The notes beneath the pieces are model-generated. The model did not search any database. It saw only the letters and a program-made list of their open reading frames with translations, and was not told the DNA's origin. From assembly GCA_947492825.1 (NCBI GenBank), contig CANLNT010000002.1, positions 1 to 64,000 on the forward strand: 64,000 nt of DNA, given 5' to 3'. Within the stretch, counting starts at the first letter, position 1; each line of letters starts with the position of its first letter. Of the stretch, positions 26,356 to 32,517 are shown piece by piece. Origin of the DNA: an uncultured Paracoccaceae bacterium (lineage in GTDB: Bacteria > Pseudomonadota > Alphaproteobacteria > Rhodobacterales > Rhodobacteraceae). A program made the translations under genes and the position numbers.

Positions 26356-26417
26356 GAGATTAGCCTAGCTTGGAAGTGCTGGCACAAGCGTTACCGCGAT
26401 GGGCACAGAGGTTCAAT

Positions 26418-27299
26418 TTGGCACGTCTTGAAAACGCATCAGATTATGTGATCGCCCCTGCCCCGGGTGCTGATGGGCTGACGCGCGCGGTGCATGGTTT
26501 TGACCAGACCGGCGCGCCGGTTGATCTGCATGTGATCGAGGAACGGCCACTGACGATCTACCTCAACCGGCGCGAAATCGTTACTGCGATGACGATCGGG
26601 GATTACCCGGAATATCTTGCGCTGGGGTTTCTGCGTAATCAGGGGATGCTGCTGGACAGTGACGAAGTGACGGGCGTCGATTTTGATGCCGAGGTTGAAA
26701 CGGTCGTGGTGCGCACCGCACGCGAGACGGATCACGAGGAAAAGCTGGCCAAGAAGACCCGCACAAGCGGGTGTGCGGTTGGCACGGTTTTTGGCGACAT
26801 GATGGCAGGGCTGACGGGTGTCACCCTGCCTGCAACATCTGTGCGGACCTCTGATCTTTATGCGCTGGCGGCCAAGATCAACCGCACGCCAAGCCTTTAT
26901 CTTGAGGCCGGTGCCATTCACGGTACGGTGCTGTGTCAGGGCGCGCAGCCGCTGGTCTATATGGAGGACGTGGGCCGCCACAACGCGGTCGACAAGATCG
27001 CGGGCTGGATGCACGCCGAAAGGGTCAGCGCGGGCGACAAGCTGCTTTACACCACCGGGCGGCTGACGTCCGAGATGGTGATCAAGACCGCATTGATGGG
27101 CATCCCGGTACTTGCCTCGCGTTCAGGCTTTACGGCTTGGGGGGTCGAGATCGCGCGACAGGTCGGGCTGACGCTGATTGGCCGGATGAAGGGGCAACGG
27201 TTTGTGTGTCTGGCGGGCGAAGACCGGTTGATCCGCGACATCGACCCGGCAGATGTGCCCGACGAACCCCGCAAATCCGCGCGAAAGGCGGCGGAATGA
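26418..27299 (+). CDS. fdhD: Formate dehydrogenase accessory sulfurtransferase
   Basis: FdhD passes sulfur from a cysteine desulfurase to the molybdenum cofactor of formate dehydrogenase. Conserved parts are VIEERPLTIYLNRREIVTAM, TIGDYPEYLALGFLRNQG, MEDVGRHNAVDKIAGW and LLYTTGRLTSEMVIKTA. In the catalytic loop the usual CxxC reads SGCAVGT, with the first cysteine kept and glycine at the second position. The start is uncertain: TTG at 26418 has AGAGG six bases upstream and is used here; TTG 26370 and GTG 26376 are alternatives. It is the first gene of the molybdenum-cofactor run that continues with mobA, mobB and moeA. No formate dehydrogenase structural gene lies in the window. Confidence 0.93.
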   Translation: MARLENASDYVIAPAPGADGLTRAVHGFDQTGAPVDLHVIEERPLTIYLNRREIVTAMTIGDYPEYLALGFLRNQGMLLDSDEVTGVDFDAEVETVVVRTARETDHEEKLAKKTRTSGCAVGTVFGDMMAGLTGVTLPATSVRTSDLYALAAKINRTPSLYLEAGAIHGTVLCQGAQPLVYMEDVGRHNAVDKIAGWMHAERVSAGDKLLYTTGRLTSEMVIKTALMGIPVLASRSGFTAWGVEIARQVGLTLIGRMKGQRFVCLAGEDRLIRDIDPADVPDEPRKSARKAAE

Positions 27300-27351: not shown

Positions 27352-27363
27352 TCGGTTGCCAAG

Positions 27364-27945
27364 ATGAAACAACCCTTGGGTGTCATTCTGGCCGGTGGAC
27401 AGGCCACGCGGATGGGCGGCGGCGACAAGGGGCTGTTGCCACTGGGGCCGCAGCCGATCATCACCCATGTGATCGACCGGCTGGATCCACAGGTGGCGCG
27501 GCTAGCGCTGAATGCCAATGGCGATCCCGCGCGGTTTGCACATCTGGGATTGCCTGTTGTGGCCGATAGCATCGCCGGTTTTGCCGGACCCCTGTCTGGC
27601 GTGCTGGCGGGGCTTGATTGGGCCGCGACGCAGGGCGCGGATCACATCGTCACGGCTGCGGCAGATACGCCGTTTTTGCCTGCCGATCTGGTGCCAAGGC
27701 TGTTGCTGGCGGGGGGCGACAAAGGGCTGGCGCTGGCGGCCTCGCCCTCGGGGCGGCAGCCGACCTTCGGGTTGTGGCCCGTGGCACTGCGCGATGATCT
27801 GCGCGCAGCGCTGGAGGGCGGGCTGCGCAAGGTGGTGCAATGGACCGCAGAGCACGGGGCTGGCACGGCGGAATTTCCCGACGACATCCAGTTCTTCAAC
27901 GTCAACACGCCTGATGATCTAAGCAAAGCGCAGGCAATGCTATGA
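27364..27945 (+). CDS. mobA: Molybdenum cofactor guanylyltransferase
   Basis: MobA attaches GMP from GTP to molybdopterin to form the bis-MGD cofactor used by DMSO-reductase family enzymes such as formate dehydrogenase. The nucleotide loop LAGGQATRMGGGDKGLLPL and the conserved FAGPLSGVLAGLD and AAADTPFLPADLV are present; length 193 residues is normal. The ATG at 27364 gives the family start MKQPLGVILAGG; the upstream in-frame extension would run through the repeat and the fdhD end. It overlaps mobB by 4 bp (ATGA). Confidence 0.95.
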   Translation: MKQPLGVILAGGQATRMGGGDKGLLPLGPQPIITHVIDRLDPQVARLALNANGDPARFAHLGLPVVADSIAGFAGPLSGVLAGLDWAATQGADHIVTAAADTPFLPADLVPRLLLAGGDKGLALAASPSGRQPTFGLWPVALRDDLRAALEGGLRKVVQWTAEHGAGTAEFPDDIQFFNVNTPDDLSKAQAML

Positions 27946-28433
27946 ACGTCTTTGGCATCGTCGGGTTCAAGAATGCGGGCAAAACCGGGCTGATGGAACG
28001 CCTCGTGACAGAGATTGCCGGGCGCGGGTTCAGTGTGTCGACGTTGAAACACGCGCATCACAGCTTTGACGTCGATCAGCCGGGCAAGGACAGTCATCGG
28101 CACCGCGTGGCGGGGGCCAATCAGGTGCTCTTGGCCTCTGGCACCCGCTGGGCGCTGATGAGCGAGCTGCGTTACGCAGCTGAACCGACCTTGGCCGATC
28201 TGCTGACCCGGCTTGATCCGGTCGATCTGGTGCTGGTCGAGGGCTACAAGCGCGATGCCCATCCCAAGATCGAGGCGTATCGACACGCGACCGGGCATCC
28301 GCTGCTTGCGCCCGGTGACCCCACCGTGCGCGGCGTGGCAAGTGACGCCGCTGTCAATGTCCCCTGCCCACGATTTGATCTGGATGATACGGTGGCAATT
28401 GCGGATTTCATCCTGCAAGAGGTCGGATTGTGA
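27942..28433 (+). CDS. mobB: Molybdopterin-guanine dinucleotide biosynthesis adaptor
   Basis: A 163-residue P-loop GTPase that assists MobA. The Walker A loop is GFKNAGKTGLMERL near the N-terminus, followed by STLKHAHHSFDVDQPGKDS and LVLVEGYKRDAHPKIE, all conserved in MobB. It overlaps mobA and the following moeA-like gene by 4 bp each, so the three are one translational unit. Confidence 0.95.
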   Translation: MNVFGIVGFKNAGKTGLMERLVTEIAGRGFSVSTLKHAHHSFDVDQPGKDSHRHRVAGANQVLLASGTRWALMSELRYAAEPTLADLLTRLDPVDLVLVEGYKRDAHPKIEAYRHATGHPLLAPGDPTVRGVASDAAVNVPCPRFDLDDTVAIADFILQEVGL

Positions 28434-30508
28434 GCTTTGACACCGTGATCATGGTGGATTGGTCGGCCGCTAACGGCTTTGGTCCGAAACCACGCAGCGA
28501 TGCAATCTGGGCAAGTATCGCGCGAGATGGGAGCGCAGACGATCCCGTTTATCTGCGCAACAGACAGGTTGCGGAAACATGGATCAAGGATGCCATTCGT
28601 ACTGAACGTGCGCAGGGACGTCGCATCCTTGTTGGTTTTGATTTGTGCTTTGCCTACCCGAGCGGTTTTGCCACGCAGATTGTCGGCTCTGAGGATGTTT
28701 TTGACCTTTGGGATTGGTTCGAGCGCGAAGTCGAAGACACTCCAAAGGCAAACAATCGGTTTGATGTCGCCGCAAAGCTGAACCGTTTCTTTGTGGGTGA
28801 AGGCCCGTTCTGGTTCAATGGGCTGAAGCGAGACATCCCTGATCTTCCAAGGAACAAGGACAACTATCAATCTCAGCCGTTCTCGGAGTTTCGGCAGGCC
28901 GACAAGGCCGCGTCTGGCGCACAGTCACCCTTCAAGCTTGGCGGGGTTGGTGCGGTTGGCGGACAGGTGATCATGGGGCTGCCGATGCTGTCGCGGTTGC
29001 GGCAGACGTTCGGCAAGGACCTGAAGGTTTGGCCGTTTGAGGCGGCGGATACACCTGTTGTACTGGCCGAAACCTATTTCTCACTGCTGGACGATCGGCT
29101 GGACGGCCATCCGATCAAGGATGCAGCACAGGTCGCGCTATATGCCGCGCGCTTTTCGGCCCTGTCGGCAGATGATTGGGCAAAAATGCTGGACCGACCC
29201 CCAGATCCAGAGGGTTGGGTCTTGGGGCTTGGGCAAGAGGCCCTGTTGGCCGGGCGTTTGACACCGCCGCCGTTGCGCAACGATTGTTTTGCGATGCCGC
29301 AGGGGGCCTATTGGACGCCGGTCGATGATGCCATGGCGCATCTGCGCAACCACCTGACACCTGTCGTTGGCACCGAAGACATTGCCGTGACGGACGCGGC
29401 TGGCCGCATTCTGGCCGCCCCTGCCAAGGCGCAGCGCAGCCATCCACCTGCGGCAAATGCAGCCGTGGATGGGTATGCCTTTGCCGGACCCGCCGCAGAG
29501 GGGCCGCAACACATGCCACTGGTCGCTGGACGGGCGGCAGCAGGCGCGCCCTATGACGGCGTGGTGCCTGCGGGGCAGGCTGTACGCATCCTGACCGGGG
29601 CAATCCTGCCCGCAGGCGTGGACAGCATCGTGCTGCAGGAAGACGTCAGCGCGACTGCACACCACATCGCCTTTCACGGGCCGCTGAAGCGCGGGGCCAA
29701 CGCGCGCAAGGCGGGTGAGGATATGGCGGCTGGCGATGTGGTTTTGCCCATCGGCCGGGTGCTGACGCCTGCCGATCTGGGGACGCTGACAGCGGTGGGC
29801 ATCGGCACGGTCCGCGCGCATAAGCGGCTGCGGGTCGGGGTGCTGTCAACCGGGGATGAGTTGCTGGCACCGGGCGCGCCCGCCACCGACGCGCAGGTCT
29901 ACGACGCCAATGGCCCAATGCTACGCGCGACGCTTGCGCGCTGGGGGTTCGCGGTTGTTGATCTGGGTCGTGCGCCTGATACGCGCGATGGGCTTGCCGC
30001 CCTGCTAGATGATGCAGCACAGCGCTGCGATGCGGTGCTGACCTCTGGCGGGGCGTCAGGGGGTGACGAAGACCACGTATCAGCCCTGTTGCAGGACAGC
30101 GGGTCCTTTGCGCTGTGGCGCGTCGCGGTCAAGCCGGGCCGCCCGCTGGCCATGGGGCAATGGCGGGGGATGCCGGTGCTGGGCCTGCCGGGGAACCCGG
30201 TTGCGGCACAGGTCTGCACGTTGATATTTGCGCGCCCGGCCTTGCATCAACTTGCGGGCGCGGGATGGGTAGAGCCGGTCGCCTTTGACCTGCCTGCAGG
30301 CTTTGCAAAATCCAAGAAAGCGGGCCGCCGGGAATACCTGCGCGCGCGGATCACCGAAGGCCGGGTCGAGGTTTTCCCGTCCGAAGGGTCGGGGCGAATT
30401 TCGGGGTTGAGCTGGGCCGCCGGGCTGGTTGAGCTGCCTGACGCCGCCTGCACGATCTCGCCTGGCGATCCGGTGCGTTTTCTGCCGTTCTCTGGGTTTG
30501 GCCTGTGA
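28430..30508 (+). CDS. moeA: Fusion: DUF429-like domain + molybdopterin molybdenumtransferase
   Basis: A 692-residue protein made of two parts. Residues about 297-692 are MoeA, which inserts molybdate into adenylylated molybdopterin: NAAVDGYAF (343-351), GAILPAGVDSIVLQED (390-405), STGDEL (473-478), TSGGASGGDEDHV (538-550), KPGRPLA (568-574) and GLPGNPVA (585-592). Residues 1-285 are a separate RNase H-like domain resembling DUF429: VDWSAANG with D10, VGFDLCFAYPSGF with D71, and IKDAAQVALYAARF with D231, spaced like the acidic triad of that fold. In Rhodobacteraceae I recall this domain as a separate protein labelled molybdopterin-guanine dinucleotide synthesis protein; its role is not proven. 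Start GTG overlaps the mobB stop, and the end overlaps the GNAT gene. One continuous frame, with no sign of frameshift. Confidence 0.92.
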   Translation: MSFDTVIMVDWSAANGFGPKPRSDAIWASIARDGSADDPVYLRNRQVAETWIKDAIRTERAQGRRILVGFDLCFAYPSGFATQIVGSEDVFDLWDWFEREVEDTPKANNRFDVAAKLNRFFVGEGPFWFNGLKRDIPDLPRNKDNYQSQPFSEFRQADKAASGAQSPFKLGGVGAVGGQVIMGLPMLSRLRQTFGKDLKVWPFEAADTPVVLAETYFSLLDDRLDGHPIKDAAQVALYAARFSALSADDWAKMLDRPPDPEGWVLGLGQEALLAGRLTPPPLRNDCFAMPQGAYWTPVDDAMAHLRNHLTPVVGTEDIAVTDAAGRILAAPAKAQRSHPPAANAAVDGYAFAGPAAEGPQHMPLVAGRAAAGAPYDGVVPAGQAVRILTGAILPAGVDSIVLQEDVSATAHHIAFHGPLKRGANARKAGEDMAAGDVVLPIGRVLTPADLGTLTAVGIGTVRAHKRLRVGVLSTGDELLAPGAPATDAQVYDANGPMLRATLARWGFAVVDLGRAPDTRDGLAALLDDAAQRCDAVLTSGGASGGDEDHVSALLQDSGSFALWRVAVKPGRPLAMGQWRGMPVLGLPGNPVAAQVCTLIFARPALHQLAGAGWVEPVAFDLPAGFAKSKKAGRREYLRARITEGRVEVFPSEGSGRISGLSWAAGLVELPDAACTISPGDPVRFLPFSGFGL

Positions 30509-31083
30509 TCCTGCAAAGCCCGGTTCCAGACGCGGATATCCCAGAGGCCGCAGCGCTTTACTGGCAGGCCTTTGCAGCCAAGCTGCATATCGCCCTTGGG
30601 CCTGCGGACAAGGGACAGGCCTTTGTCACCCGCGTATTTGACCCGACCCACGGGATCAGCATCCATGCGGACGATGGCACCTTGCTGGGCGTTGCAGGGT
30701 TCAAAACTGCCAAAAGCGCGCTTGTTGGCGGTGAATTTTCCGACCTGAAGGCAATTTATGGGTTGTGGGGGGCGACGTGGCGCGCGGCGCTGTTGCACAT
30801 GTTGGAACGCGACACGGAAAACAGCCGCTTTTTGATGGACGGCGTCTTTGTCGCCGAACGCGCGCGGGGCCAAGGCGTTGGCACGGCACTGCTGCGGGCG
30901 ATTTGCGATGAAGGTGCGCGGCGCGGCTATGCCGAGGTACGGCTGGACGTGATTGACAGCAACCCACGGGCGCAGGCGCTTTATGCACGCGAGGGATTTG
31001 TGGCGACCAAAACCACCGCCTTGGGCCCACTGCGCCACATCTTCGGTTTCAATGCCAGCACGACGATGGTCAAAACTCTTTAG
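30505..31083 (+). CDS. GNAT family N-acetyltransferase
   Basis: A 192-residue acetyltransferase. The acetyl-CoA loop is FVAERARGQGVGTALLRAIC (about residues 114-133), followed by VRLDVIDSNPRAQALYAREG, the typical motif B. The GTG start at 30505 overlaps the end of the moeA fusion by 4 bp, so it is expressed with the molybdenum-cofactor genes, but nothing in the sequence ties its activity to them. Substrate unknown. Confidence 0.88.
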   Translation: MILQSPVPDADIPEAAALYWQAFAAKLHIALGPADKGQAFVTRVFDPTHGISIHADDGTLLGVAGFKTAKSALVGGEFSDLKAIYGLWGATWRAALLHMLERDTENSRFLMDGVFVAERARGQGVGTALLRAICDEGARRGYAEVRLDVIDSNPRAQALYAREGFVATKTTALGPLRHIFGFNASTTMVKTL

Positions 31084-31171: not shown

Positions 31172-31789
31172 ATGCCGGACGGTGGCAGCGAAATTAAGCA
31201 GGGACGCAAGTTCGATCAGGTGCTTTCAGGCGCGCGGGAGGTGTTCATGCGCGACGGGTTCGAAGGCGCATCCGTGGACGATATCGCCCGCGCGGCAGGC
31301 GTGTCCAAGGCCACGCTGTACAGCTATTTCGCCGACAAGCGCCTGTTGTTTATGGAAATTGCCCGGCGCGAGTGCAACCGACAGGCCGAACAGGCGATTG
31401 GTGCGATCGACATGGACGCGCCCTTGGCGGAAATTCTGCGCGCGGTGGGCTGGGAGTTTGTAAACATCATCACTTCTGACTTTGGACAGCGCATTTTTCG
31501 GATCTGCGTGGCAGAGGCTGACCGATTCCCCGAGTTGGGCCGCGCGTTCTATGAAAGCGGGCCCAACATCATGCGCACCCGGATGATCGAGCTGCTGGAA
31601 TGCGGCGTGGCGCGCGGCGAACTGGCGATCGACGATATGGAACTGGCTGCTGATCAATTCCCGGAGCTGTGCAAGGCCGATCTGTTCCCGCGCATGGTGT
31701 TCAAAGGTGTGGACAGCTTCACGGACGCGGAAAAACAGCGCGTGATCGAAGGGGCCGTTGCCACCTTCATGGCGCGGTACGGGGTCTAG
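31172..31789 (+). CDS. TetR/AcrR family transcriptional regulator
   Basis: A 205-residue repressor-type regulator. The N-terminal HTH is DDIARAAGVSKATLYSYF, followed by DKRLLFMEIARREC; the C-terminal ligand and dimer domain resembles the AefR-like group. The ATG at 31172 has AGAGG five bases upstream; a GTG two codons earlier is less likely. A probable self-operator lies in its promoter (31128-31141). It is convergent with the NYN gene and their stop codons share the bases CTAG (4-bp overlap). Its targets are not evident, since neither neighbour is a transporter. Confidence 0.92.
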   Translation: MPDGGSEIKQGRKFDQVLSGAREVFMRDGFEGASVDDIARAAGVSKATLYSYFADKRLLFMEIARRECNRQAEQAIGAIDMDAPLAEILRAVGWEFVNIITSDFGQRIFRICVAEADRFPELGRAFYESGPNIMRTRMIELLECGVARGELAIDDMELAADQFPELCKADLFPRMVFKGVDSFTDAEKQRVIEGAVATFMARYGV

Positions 31790-32517
31790 TCGAGCCGTTG
31801 CACCGTCAGATGGTTGCCATTTGGGTCCTTGGTCACGGTGAAGCGCTTTGTTTCGATCAACAAGCTACTGAGTTTGGCAGACCCAAAGGTGCGTGGGTCA
31901 AAATCCGGGTTGGAACGGGTGATGTATTGGCCGAGTTGTCCCAGCGAATAGCTGACTGCGTCAGCGTCTATGTTGTTCATCGCCTTCAGCACCAGAGGAA
32001 TCACATCTTTGGCTGGTTTCTTGCCTGACATCTTGGCCGAGGCCTTGGGAGCGGATTTGTCGACGTCTTTGCCTGCCTCAATCAGGTTTTCGATCAGGAT
32101 GAACCGGTTGCAGACGTTGCGCAGGCTGACAGGAGCCTTGCTTTCGCCAATGCCGATCACATCGACCCCGTCTTCGCGCAAACGGTTGGCAAGGGCCGTG
32201 AAATCGCTGTCGGAGGAGACCAGCACGAAACCGTCGAACCGGCCCTTGTGCAGGATATCCATCGCATCAATCACAAGGCCGATGTCGCTGGCGTTCTTGC
32301 CCACAGTATTCGCAGTTTCCTGATTGGCAACCAGCCCCAGTTCCAGCACAACTTTGCGCCAACCGTTCAGGTTGCTGGACGACCAATCGCCATAGACCCG
32401 CCGCAGCGCGGGTTCGCCATATCGGGTGATTTCCTTGAGGATCGCACTTGCGTGTTTGGCAGGAATATTGTCCGCGTCGATCAGCACTGCCAGTAGCATC
32501 CGCTCGTTCTGGGCCAT
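31786..32517 (-). CDS. NYN-domain protein with C-terminal OST-HTH/LOTUS domain
   Basis: A 243-residue soluble protein. The NYN (PIN-like) ribonuclease domain spans about residues 8-150: AVLIDADNIPA with D14 and D16, KNASDIGLVIDAMDIL, and VLVSSDSDFTALANRLREDG. These supply the acidic residues expected for metal-dependent RNA cleavage. After a basic linker (about 155-170) comes a small helix-turn-helix-like OST/LOTUS domain (DVIPLVLKAMNNIDADAV to the end), which in other proteins binds RNA or protein partners. This LabA/DUF88-type layout suggests an RNA-processing function; no substrate is known. Confidence 0.9.
   Translation of the reverse strand: MAQNERMLLAVLIDADNIPAKHASAILKEITRYGEPALRRVYGDWSSSNLNGWRKVVLELGLVANQETANTVGKNASDIGLVIDAMDILHKGRFDGFVLVSSDSDFTALANRLREDGVDVIGIGESKAPVSLRNVCNRFILIENLIEAGKDVDKSAPKASAKMSGKKPAKDVIPLVLKAMNNIDADAVSYSLGQLGQYITRSNPDFDPRTFGSAKLSSLLIETKRFTVTKDPNGNHLTVQRLD

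What the first reader, a model, noticed from the sequence alone, without database searches (positions are those of the whole stretch)
28430..30508. MoeA fused to an N-terminal DUF429-like RNase H-fold domain
One uninterrupted frame encodes about 285 residues of a DUF429-like domain with three well-placed aspartates (D10, D71, D231) and then complete MoeA. RNase H-like domains usually act on nucleic acid; their link to molybdenum-cofactor synthesis is seen in Rhodobacteraceae only as neighbouring genes, as far as I recall. A covalent fusion is a strong sign of a direct functional link, for example acting on the nucleotide part of the cofactor.
Basis: partly seen in the sequence, partly recalled or inferred. 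Interest (0 to 1): 0.75.

Follow-up and report, generated by a model that had tools for sequence, protein, structure and literature searches.

The report
RNase H-like domain fused to MoeA
In many marine Rhodobacteraceae the enzyme that inserts molybdenum into its cofactor carries an extra, uncharacterised domain that looks like an RNase H-type hydrolase; relatives of that domain are fused instead to a vitamin B12 enzyme, so one unknown activity may serve two cofactor pathways.

Summary
The fusion is real. One 692-codon frame (28430-30508) encodes a ~275-residue N-terminal domain (NDOM) and a complete MoeA, in the order fdhD-mobA-mobB-NDOM::moeA-GNAT. It recurs in 45 of 90 same-family loci (window included; one has a broken moeA frame) and 65 of 80 named loci. 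NDOM has no Pfam family and is not DUF429 (PF04250) by sequence. A confident AlphaFold model has RNase H-like order of elements and mostly RNase H-like Foldseek neighbours, but all are below significance with low TM-scores. D10, D71, E214 and D231 are nearly invariant. NCBI already knows the domain as the 'unknown domain' of PRK14495. New here is the distribution: relatives are fused to CbiC or MobB, or lie beside B12 genes. Each of 92 family genomes with a match has one copy; 83 of 90 loci lie with Moco (75) or B12 (8) genes. A sister family lies beside rarA. Best reading: a metal-dependent RNase H-fold phosphoester hydrolase recruited repeatedly to cofactor assembly. Its substrate is unknown; the CbiC fusions weaken, not exclude, the 'nucleotide part of Moco' idea.

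The parts
26370..27299 (+). fdhD (formate dehydrogenase accessory sulfurtransferase)
   Evidence: PF02634, E 1.1e-71
27355..27945 (+). mobA (molybdenum cofactor guanylyltransferase); the start is my choice, the longest ORF begins at 27253
   Evidence: TIGR02665 205.6 bits, over its cut-off; ORF
27942..28433 (+). mobB; overlaps the fusion gene by 4 bases
   Evidence: PF03205 E 9.8e-47; coordinates
28430..30508 (+). fusion gene NDOM::moeA, 692 aa
28430..29257 (+). NDOM, residues 1-276: uncharacterised RNase H-like domain (limits from the model's low-confidence linker)
   Evidence: no Pfam; matches the 'unknown domain' of NF011066/PRK14495, residues 2-271, E 5.3e-51; AlphaFold2 pLDDT 94.9, pTM 0.92
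28457..28459 (+). codon of D10, end of strand 5-10
   Evidence: 92-100% in the context groups tabulated, shortfalls being gaps; strand
28640..28642 (+). codon of D71, directly after strand 66-70
   Evidence: 100% in all eight groups tabulated
29069..29071 (+). codon of E214, end of strand 210-214
   Evidence: 100% in all eight groups tabulated
29120..29122 (+). codon of D231, start of helix 230-243
   Evidence: 100% in the seven NDOM groups tabulated, 55% in the sister family A3
29258..29269 (+). linker, residues 277-280, the only listed segment with pLDDT under 50
29270..30505 (+). MoeA part, residues 281-692
   Evidence: PF03453, PF00994, PF03454; PRK14491 match from residue 281
30505..31083 (+). 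GNAT acetyltransferase, overlaps the fusion gene by 4 bases; a related gene is often near NDOM in relatives
   Evidence: PF00583 E 5.4e-14; neighbours

Best explanation
The first ~275 residues belong to an uncharacterised subfamily of RNase H-like fold proteins (NDOM) that keeps a full set of acidic metal-ligand candidates (D10, D71, E214, D231). Shown by comparison: it is a frequent partner of molybdenum-cofactor genes in Rhodobacteraceae and of cobalamin genes in part of the class, as a fusion to MoeA, MobB or CbiC or as a neighbour. Inferred: it is an active divalent-metal-dependent phosphoester hydrolase recruited to cofactor assembly, where it trims or clears a phosphorylated or nucleotide-bearing molecule near the metal-insertion and guanylyl-transfer steps. 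In the window it is tethered by a short, probably flexible linker to the mobAB-linked MoeA of the cell, while the other MoeA (moaC neighbourhood) has no such domain.
For: Fold: AlphaFold2 pLDDT 94.9 and pTM 0.92; order b1-b2-b3-aA-b4-helices-b5-helix with D10 at the end of b1, D71 just after b4 and D231 at the start of the late helix. Foldseek against PDB: by my reading of the names 18 of the first 20 rows are RNase H-like (terminase nucleases, RNase H, YqgF, Argonaute, RuvC-bearing Cas), best E 0.059; BFVD has RNases H, terminases and polymerases high up, best E 0.016. Conservation. Context: 83 of 90 family loci lie with Moco genes (75) or B12 genes (8); in other families 16 of 42 do, with CbiC, CbiX, CobU, a CobQ-type protein and CobD confirmed by Pfam. 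Tree of 161: a clade of 97, mostly Moco (support 98*), holds three B12 rows (L075, L076, L080) in a starred subclade of 7, so the domain appears to have moved between pathways. The sister family A3 (hhalign E 3e-39) has rarA nearby in 14 of 20 loci against 0 of 164 NDOM loci, so the cofactor link is particular to NDOM. Own genome: cbiX-cbiC without NDOM, and a second MoeA beside MoaC.
Against: No Foldseek hit reaches E 0.001, and the listed TM-scores normalised to the query are only about 0.10-0.25. No biochemical data. 7 of 90 family loci and 26 of 42 loci in other families show no Moco or B12 neighbour, many seen only with 1.5 kb flanks; one copy is fused to a hydantoinase A protein (L167). 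NDOM was not found in 57 of 149 family genomes (single-sequence search), 27 of which have both CbiC and MobB, so it is not required for either pathway. MoeA-fused copies are acidic (median pI 5.3). The full-length model gives no confident arrangement of the two domains (pTM 0.64).
Confidence: 0.4

Rival explanations
1. NDOM is a true nuclease on RNA, RNA/DNA hybrids or branched DNA, linked to cofactor operons for regulation (for example cutting its own mRNA) or only for co-expression.
For: RNase H-like order of elements and structural neighbours; the sister family has rarA, a replication-fork gene (role recalled), nearby in 14 of 20 loci (one representative confirmed as MgsA_C/AAA); the introduction of PMC4429107 (passages) cites RNase HII activity for a DUF429 protein and an RNase HI::CobC fusion in mycobacteria.
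Against: MoeA- and CbiC-fused copies are acidic (median pI 5.3 and 5.95), though separate copies are mostly neutral to basic; several residues nearly fixed in NDOM are not kept in the rarA-linked sister family (N118, Q179, Q234), which suggests a new substrate; no Rfam match, hence no known riboswitch, in the window or 8 B12 loci.
Confidence: 0.25
2. NDOM is a non-catalytic scaffold or chaperone that holds cofactor enzymes together.
For: It fuses to different partners (MoeA, MobB, CbiC) and many genomes do without it (57 of 149).
Against: Near-invariant carboxylates in every context group are not expected of a scaffold; no confident docking onto MoeA is predicted.
Confidence: 0.2

Closest known systems
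NCBIfam NF011066 / PRK14495, MobB/unknown domain fusion protein
   Same: Its second half is this domain: match to residues 2-271 of the window protein, E 5.3e-51, and to residues 2-280 of the CbiC-fused L071 copy, E 2.5e-51.
   Different: There the domain follows MobB; here it precedes MoeA. The window protein scores 174 against a cut-off of 596, and the model names no function.
NCBIfam NF011060 / PRK14491, MobB::MoeA bifunctional protein
   Same: Same operon position and the same kind of MoeA half (match from residue 281).
   Different: No NDOM between the halves. An mobB-moeA frame without NDOM occurs in 4 of 5 examined family genomes whose Moco operon lacks NDOM.
DUF429 (PF04250), RNase H-like clade D of Majorek et al. 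2014 (PMC3985635, passages read)
   Same: By eye: D at strand 1, DxP[IF]G after strand 4, E-x-x-P, D in a late helix (consensus lines).
   Different: No Pfam match, hhalign probability 4.9%. The passages name rare fusions to NUDIX and RelA/SpoT domains; the main text has no occurrence of molybd-, MoeA, MobB, cobalamin or precorrin.
RNase HI::CobC of mycobacteria (Rv2228c, MSMEG_4305; PMC7466739 abstract, PMC4429107 passages)
   Same: An RNase H-fold domain fused N-terminally to a cofactor biosynthesis enzyme.
   Different: True RNase HI with reported activity, another cofactor enzyme, homologues only in Actinomycetales according to the abstract.

Membership tests
MoeA | MoeA_N, MoCF_biosynth and MoeA_C in order | tested here: met
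   NCBIfam MoeA models also match but stay below their whole-protein cut-offs
DUF429 (PF04250) | match to the Pfam model | tested here: not met
   no match at E<=10; no match in the window's genome
DUF429 (PF04250) | profile-profile similarity to genuine members | tested here: not met
   hhalign probability 4.9%, E 0.0081
RNase H-like superfamily | b1-b2-b3-aA-b4-a-b5 order of elements (recalled) | tested here: met
   secondary structure of the model, pLDDT 94.9
RNase H-like superfamily | acidic residues on strands 1 and 4 | tested here: met
   D10 and D71 conserved; strands
RNase H-like superfamily | significant structural match | tested here: inconclusive
   best PDB E 0.059, best BFVD E 0.016, low TM-scores; hits mainly of this superfamily
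RNase H-like superfamily | carboxylates meet in one metal site | not testable with these tools
   no coordinates are returned
RNase H-like superfamily | nuclease activity | not testable with these tools
   needs an assay
PRK14495 MobB/unknown domain fusion | score over the model's cut-off (both domains) | tested here: not met
   174 of 596 bits, second domain only

The most novel reading that the evidence does not exclude
NDOM catalyses an undescribed metal-dependent step or repair reaction shared by molybdenum-cofactor and cobalamin assembly, for example hydrolysis of a dead-end phosphorylated or nucleotidylated intermediate, and is tethered to whichever pathway needs it most in a given lineage.
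Probability: 0.22. Interest if true: 0.8.

Novelty: new variant of a known kind. Interest (0 to 1): 0.55.

Why it matters
Both pathways are commonly regarded as essentially complete (my own judgement). A conserved, apparently active domain attached to MoeA in one set of genomes and to CbiC in another points to an activity common to both that nobody has assigned. The domain is easily overlooked: in the 3 of 10 matching plasmid records where the fused gene is annotated, it is called 'gephyrin-like molybdotransferase Glp' (of the other 7, 4 say 'hypothetical protein' and 3 carry no annotation). The question can be tested in culturable relatives (titles include Ruegeria, Sulfitobacter, Roseovarius and Loktanella).

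Tried and rejected
DUF429 membership: rejected by Pfam and hhalign. A solved homologue by sequence: nothing credible for the domain (best E 0.21 and 0.63) nor for the 14 DUF429 proteins (best E 0.39). Riboswitch-linked regulation: no Rfam match at gathering threshold in the window and 8 B12 loci. Net charge as a sign of nucleic acid binding: mixed, not decisive. Phage carriage: no relative among viral contigs for the single-sequence query, whose six peptide patterns matched 6 stretches. Fixed docking of NDOM on MoeA: not predicted. An alignment of the fused MoeA with the second MoeA used a wrong-strand ORF and was discarded; the second MoeA was then confirmed by Pfam on the right strand. The query called COBI in q2.fa was translated in a wrong frame and held stops; no B12 label rests on it (checked).

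Papers. Searches: DUF429+MoeA (one listing, not read for this), PRK14495 (11, none), DUF429+cobalamin (38), DUF429 (39), RNase H+alpha-ribazole phosphatase (77), precorrin-8X methylmutase with molybdopterin, domain of unknown function and fusion (78, none), Rv2228c+RNase H+CobC (83), RNase H-like with molybdenum cofactor, fusion and cobalamin biosynthesis (84, 9 listed, none holding the term RNase H-like). Passages seen of PMC3985635, PMC3597751 (41, no cofactor link for DUF429) and PMC4429107; abstract and outline of PMC7466739. In these searches I saw no report of this fusion; most subscription papers are not held.

Full report
Observation. The window holds fdhD (26370-27299), mobA (27355-27945), mobB (27942-28433), the fusion gene (28430-30508) and a GNAT gene (30505-31083); the last four are joined by three 4-base overlaps. 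The fusion gene is one open frame of 692 codons. Pfam covers residues 297-687 with the three MoeA domains and finds nothing in the first 286 residues even at E<=10. NCBIfam identifies the first part as the second half of PRK14495, 'MobB/unknown domain fusion protein' (residues 2-271, E 5.3e-51). The domain is thus not new to NCBI curators, but it is unnamed and without a function.

How general. In 149 genomes of the same family, each from another genus, 92 have a match to the domain and each of these has exactly one (single-sequence query). I fetched 90 of these 92 loci, the window's own included (two short fragments, G102 and G028, were left out). 45 have NDOM and MoeA hits in one frame, 3 have MobB and NDOM in one frame, 42 neither. 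In one of the 45 (L021) the frame ends inside moeA. With B12 queries added, the 90 fall into NDOM::MoeA 45, separate but with mobB, moeA or fdhD nearby 13, MobB::NDOM 3, with mobA only 14, NDOM::CbiC 7, separate with CbiX and CbiC 1, other 7. Three of the mobA-only neighbours were tested and are MobA over the TIGR02665 cut-off. Of 80 named loci, the best of at least 558 relatives found with one peptide pattern, 65 are NDOM::MoeA, 12 have both genes separately and 3 lie with mobA or mobB; this set is biased towards close relatives. Most titles are Rhodobacteraceae genera.

B12 contexts. The C-terminal part of the L071 fusion is CbiC (PF02570, E 1.4e-68), between CbiX and a tetrapyrrole methylase. 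The seven CbiC fusions in the family have NDOM and CbiC hits in one frame. In other families I examined 42 NDOM loci: 6 NDOM::CbiC, 5 with CbiX and CbiC as separate genes, 4 beside CobU (two, one with a histidine phosphatase as well), a CobQ-type protein or CobD (Pfam), 1 beside fdhD and a solute-binding protein, and 26 with none of these (many with 1.5 kb flanks only). A census of 65 neighbour proteins, from loci with and without a label, was led by MatE (7), ADH_N_2 (6) and Exo_endo_phos (4), with CobU in 2 and CobD, a CobQ-type domain and DBI_PRT (CobT type) in 1 each. So a good part of the family outside Rhodobacteraceae is not in cofactor loci; 15 of the 26 form one starred clade from family codes f63, f146 and f180. 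One copy is fused in frame to a hydantoinase A protein (L167; frame, Pfam).

Of the 8 family genomes whose NDOM is in the B12 locus, 6 keep a mobB (G001, G007, G035, G057, G126, G146), and the two whose Moco operon I looked at (G035, G057) have mobA-mobB-moeA without NDOM. The window's own genome has cbiX-cbiC without NDOM and a second MoeA beside MoaC and an indole-3-glycerol phosphate synthase. Over 149 genomes: NDOM with CbiC and MobB 55, with CbiC only 11, with MobB only 18, with neither 8; without NDOM 27, 10, 9 and 11 in the same order (MobB counted over its cut-off). NDOM therefore depends neither on B12 synthesis nor on mobB, and neither pathway depends on it.

Tree. A FastTree of 161 domains rooted on 18 of the 20 sister-family (A3) loci gives a clade of 97 rows (support 98*) with 67 Moco, 18 mobA-only, 9 other and 3 B12 rows. 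The B12 rows L075, L076 and L080 sit in a starred subclade of 7 inside it, together with 4 'other' rows; the remaining 20 B12 rows lie outside, with 25 other rows and one Moco row, L178. The simplest reading is a B12-linked or mixed ancestry, one main recruitment to the Moco operon, and a return to B12 loci. FastTree supports are local, 54 of 158 inner branches are open, and the tool warns of a long outgroup branch (L159).

Sister family. Twenty more distant relatives (E about 1e-28 to 3e-11) were fetched, chosen by me from the weaker matches; a profile of 8 of them aligns with NDOM at E 3e-39. None of these 8 has a convincing Pfam match. rarA is within the fetched stretch in 14 of 20, degP in 10, crcB in 10 and rluC in 12; rarA and rluC are in 0 of 164 NDOM loci, which include some duplicates and many with shorter flanks. 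One representative of each gene agrees with its name in Pfam (MgsA_C, Trypsin_2 with PDZ, CRCB, PseudoU_synth_2).

Fold and site. AlphaFold2 on 89 sequences gives pLDDT 94.9 and pTM 0.92, with the strand and helix order of the RNase H-like fold. Foldseek finds no match at E<=0.001; by my reading of the names 18 of the first 20 PDB rows are RNase H-like, one other is a chain of a transcription complex and one a glycosidase, and query-normalised TM-scores in the list are about 0.13-0.20. In BFVD the first rows are a DNA maturase, a DNA polymerase and RNases H, with terminases further down and several unnamed or unrelated proteins between. The fold assignment thus rests on the order of elements, the place of the acidic residues and the kind of weak hits, not on one significant match. 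D10, D71 and E214 are kept in every group and in A3; D231 in the NDOM groups, 55% in A3. N118, Q179 and Q234 are near-fixed in NDOM but not in A3. The catalytic reading of these residues follows from general knowledge of RNase H-like enzymes and was not measured.

Not DUF429. An alignment of 14 genuine PF04250 proteins compared with the NDOM profile gives probability 4.9% and E 0.008, and A3 against DUF429 gives 2.0%. A remote common origin within the superfamily remains possible; I do not file NDOM under DUF429.

MoeA half. In 81 full-length fusions, of 113 found, many columns of the MoeA half are invariant, among them D347, T389, E430 and T474; I take it to be a working MoeA, but its catalytic residues were assigned from memory only. 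The whole protein is modelled with pLDDT 91.1 but pTM 0.64, and the one listed segment under 50 is residues 277-280, which fits two domains on a short flexible linker.

Verdict. A real, conserved and overlooked architecture. That the domain is an RNase H-like hydrolase is likely; that it acts in cofactor assembly is well supported by context in this family and less so outside it; its substrate is open. Precedent warns that such fusions can be neutral: for RNase HI::CobC the authors conclude fixation by drift (PMC7466739, abstract). Repeated attachment of the same domain to Moco and B12 enzymes argues against that here.

Noticed in passing
L147-L166 (sister family A3): An unnamed RNase H-like family without convincing Pfam match (8 tested), with rarA nearby in 14 of 20 loci and often degP, crcB and rluC; a candidate partner of the RarA/MgsA ATPase.
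   Followed up: partly
L210, L212-L215: In 4 of 5 examined family genomes whose Moco operon lacks NDOM, mobB and moeA share one frame (MobB::MoeA), so NDOM sits at a junction that is otherwise often fused.
   Followed up: partly
L167:2572-6006: NDOM fused in frame to a hydantoinase A/oxoprolinase protein; by eye L179 has a similar neighbour and L083 lies near an amidase and an amidohydrolase: a possible third context.
   Followed up: partly
L211:5161-5652: A DUF5946 protein (164 aa, PF19371) between cbiC and cobL in the window genome's cobalamin operon.
   Followed up: partly
L021: The moeA part of the fusion is split between two frames in genome G009, either a broken gene or a sequencing error.
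   Followed up: no
window 31786-32517: A NYN domain followed by an OST-HTH/LOTUS domain, a putative RNA-related protein a few genes downstream on the other strand.
   Followed up: no
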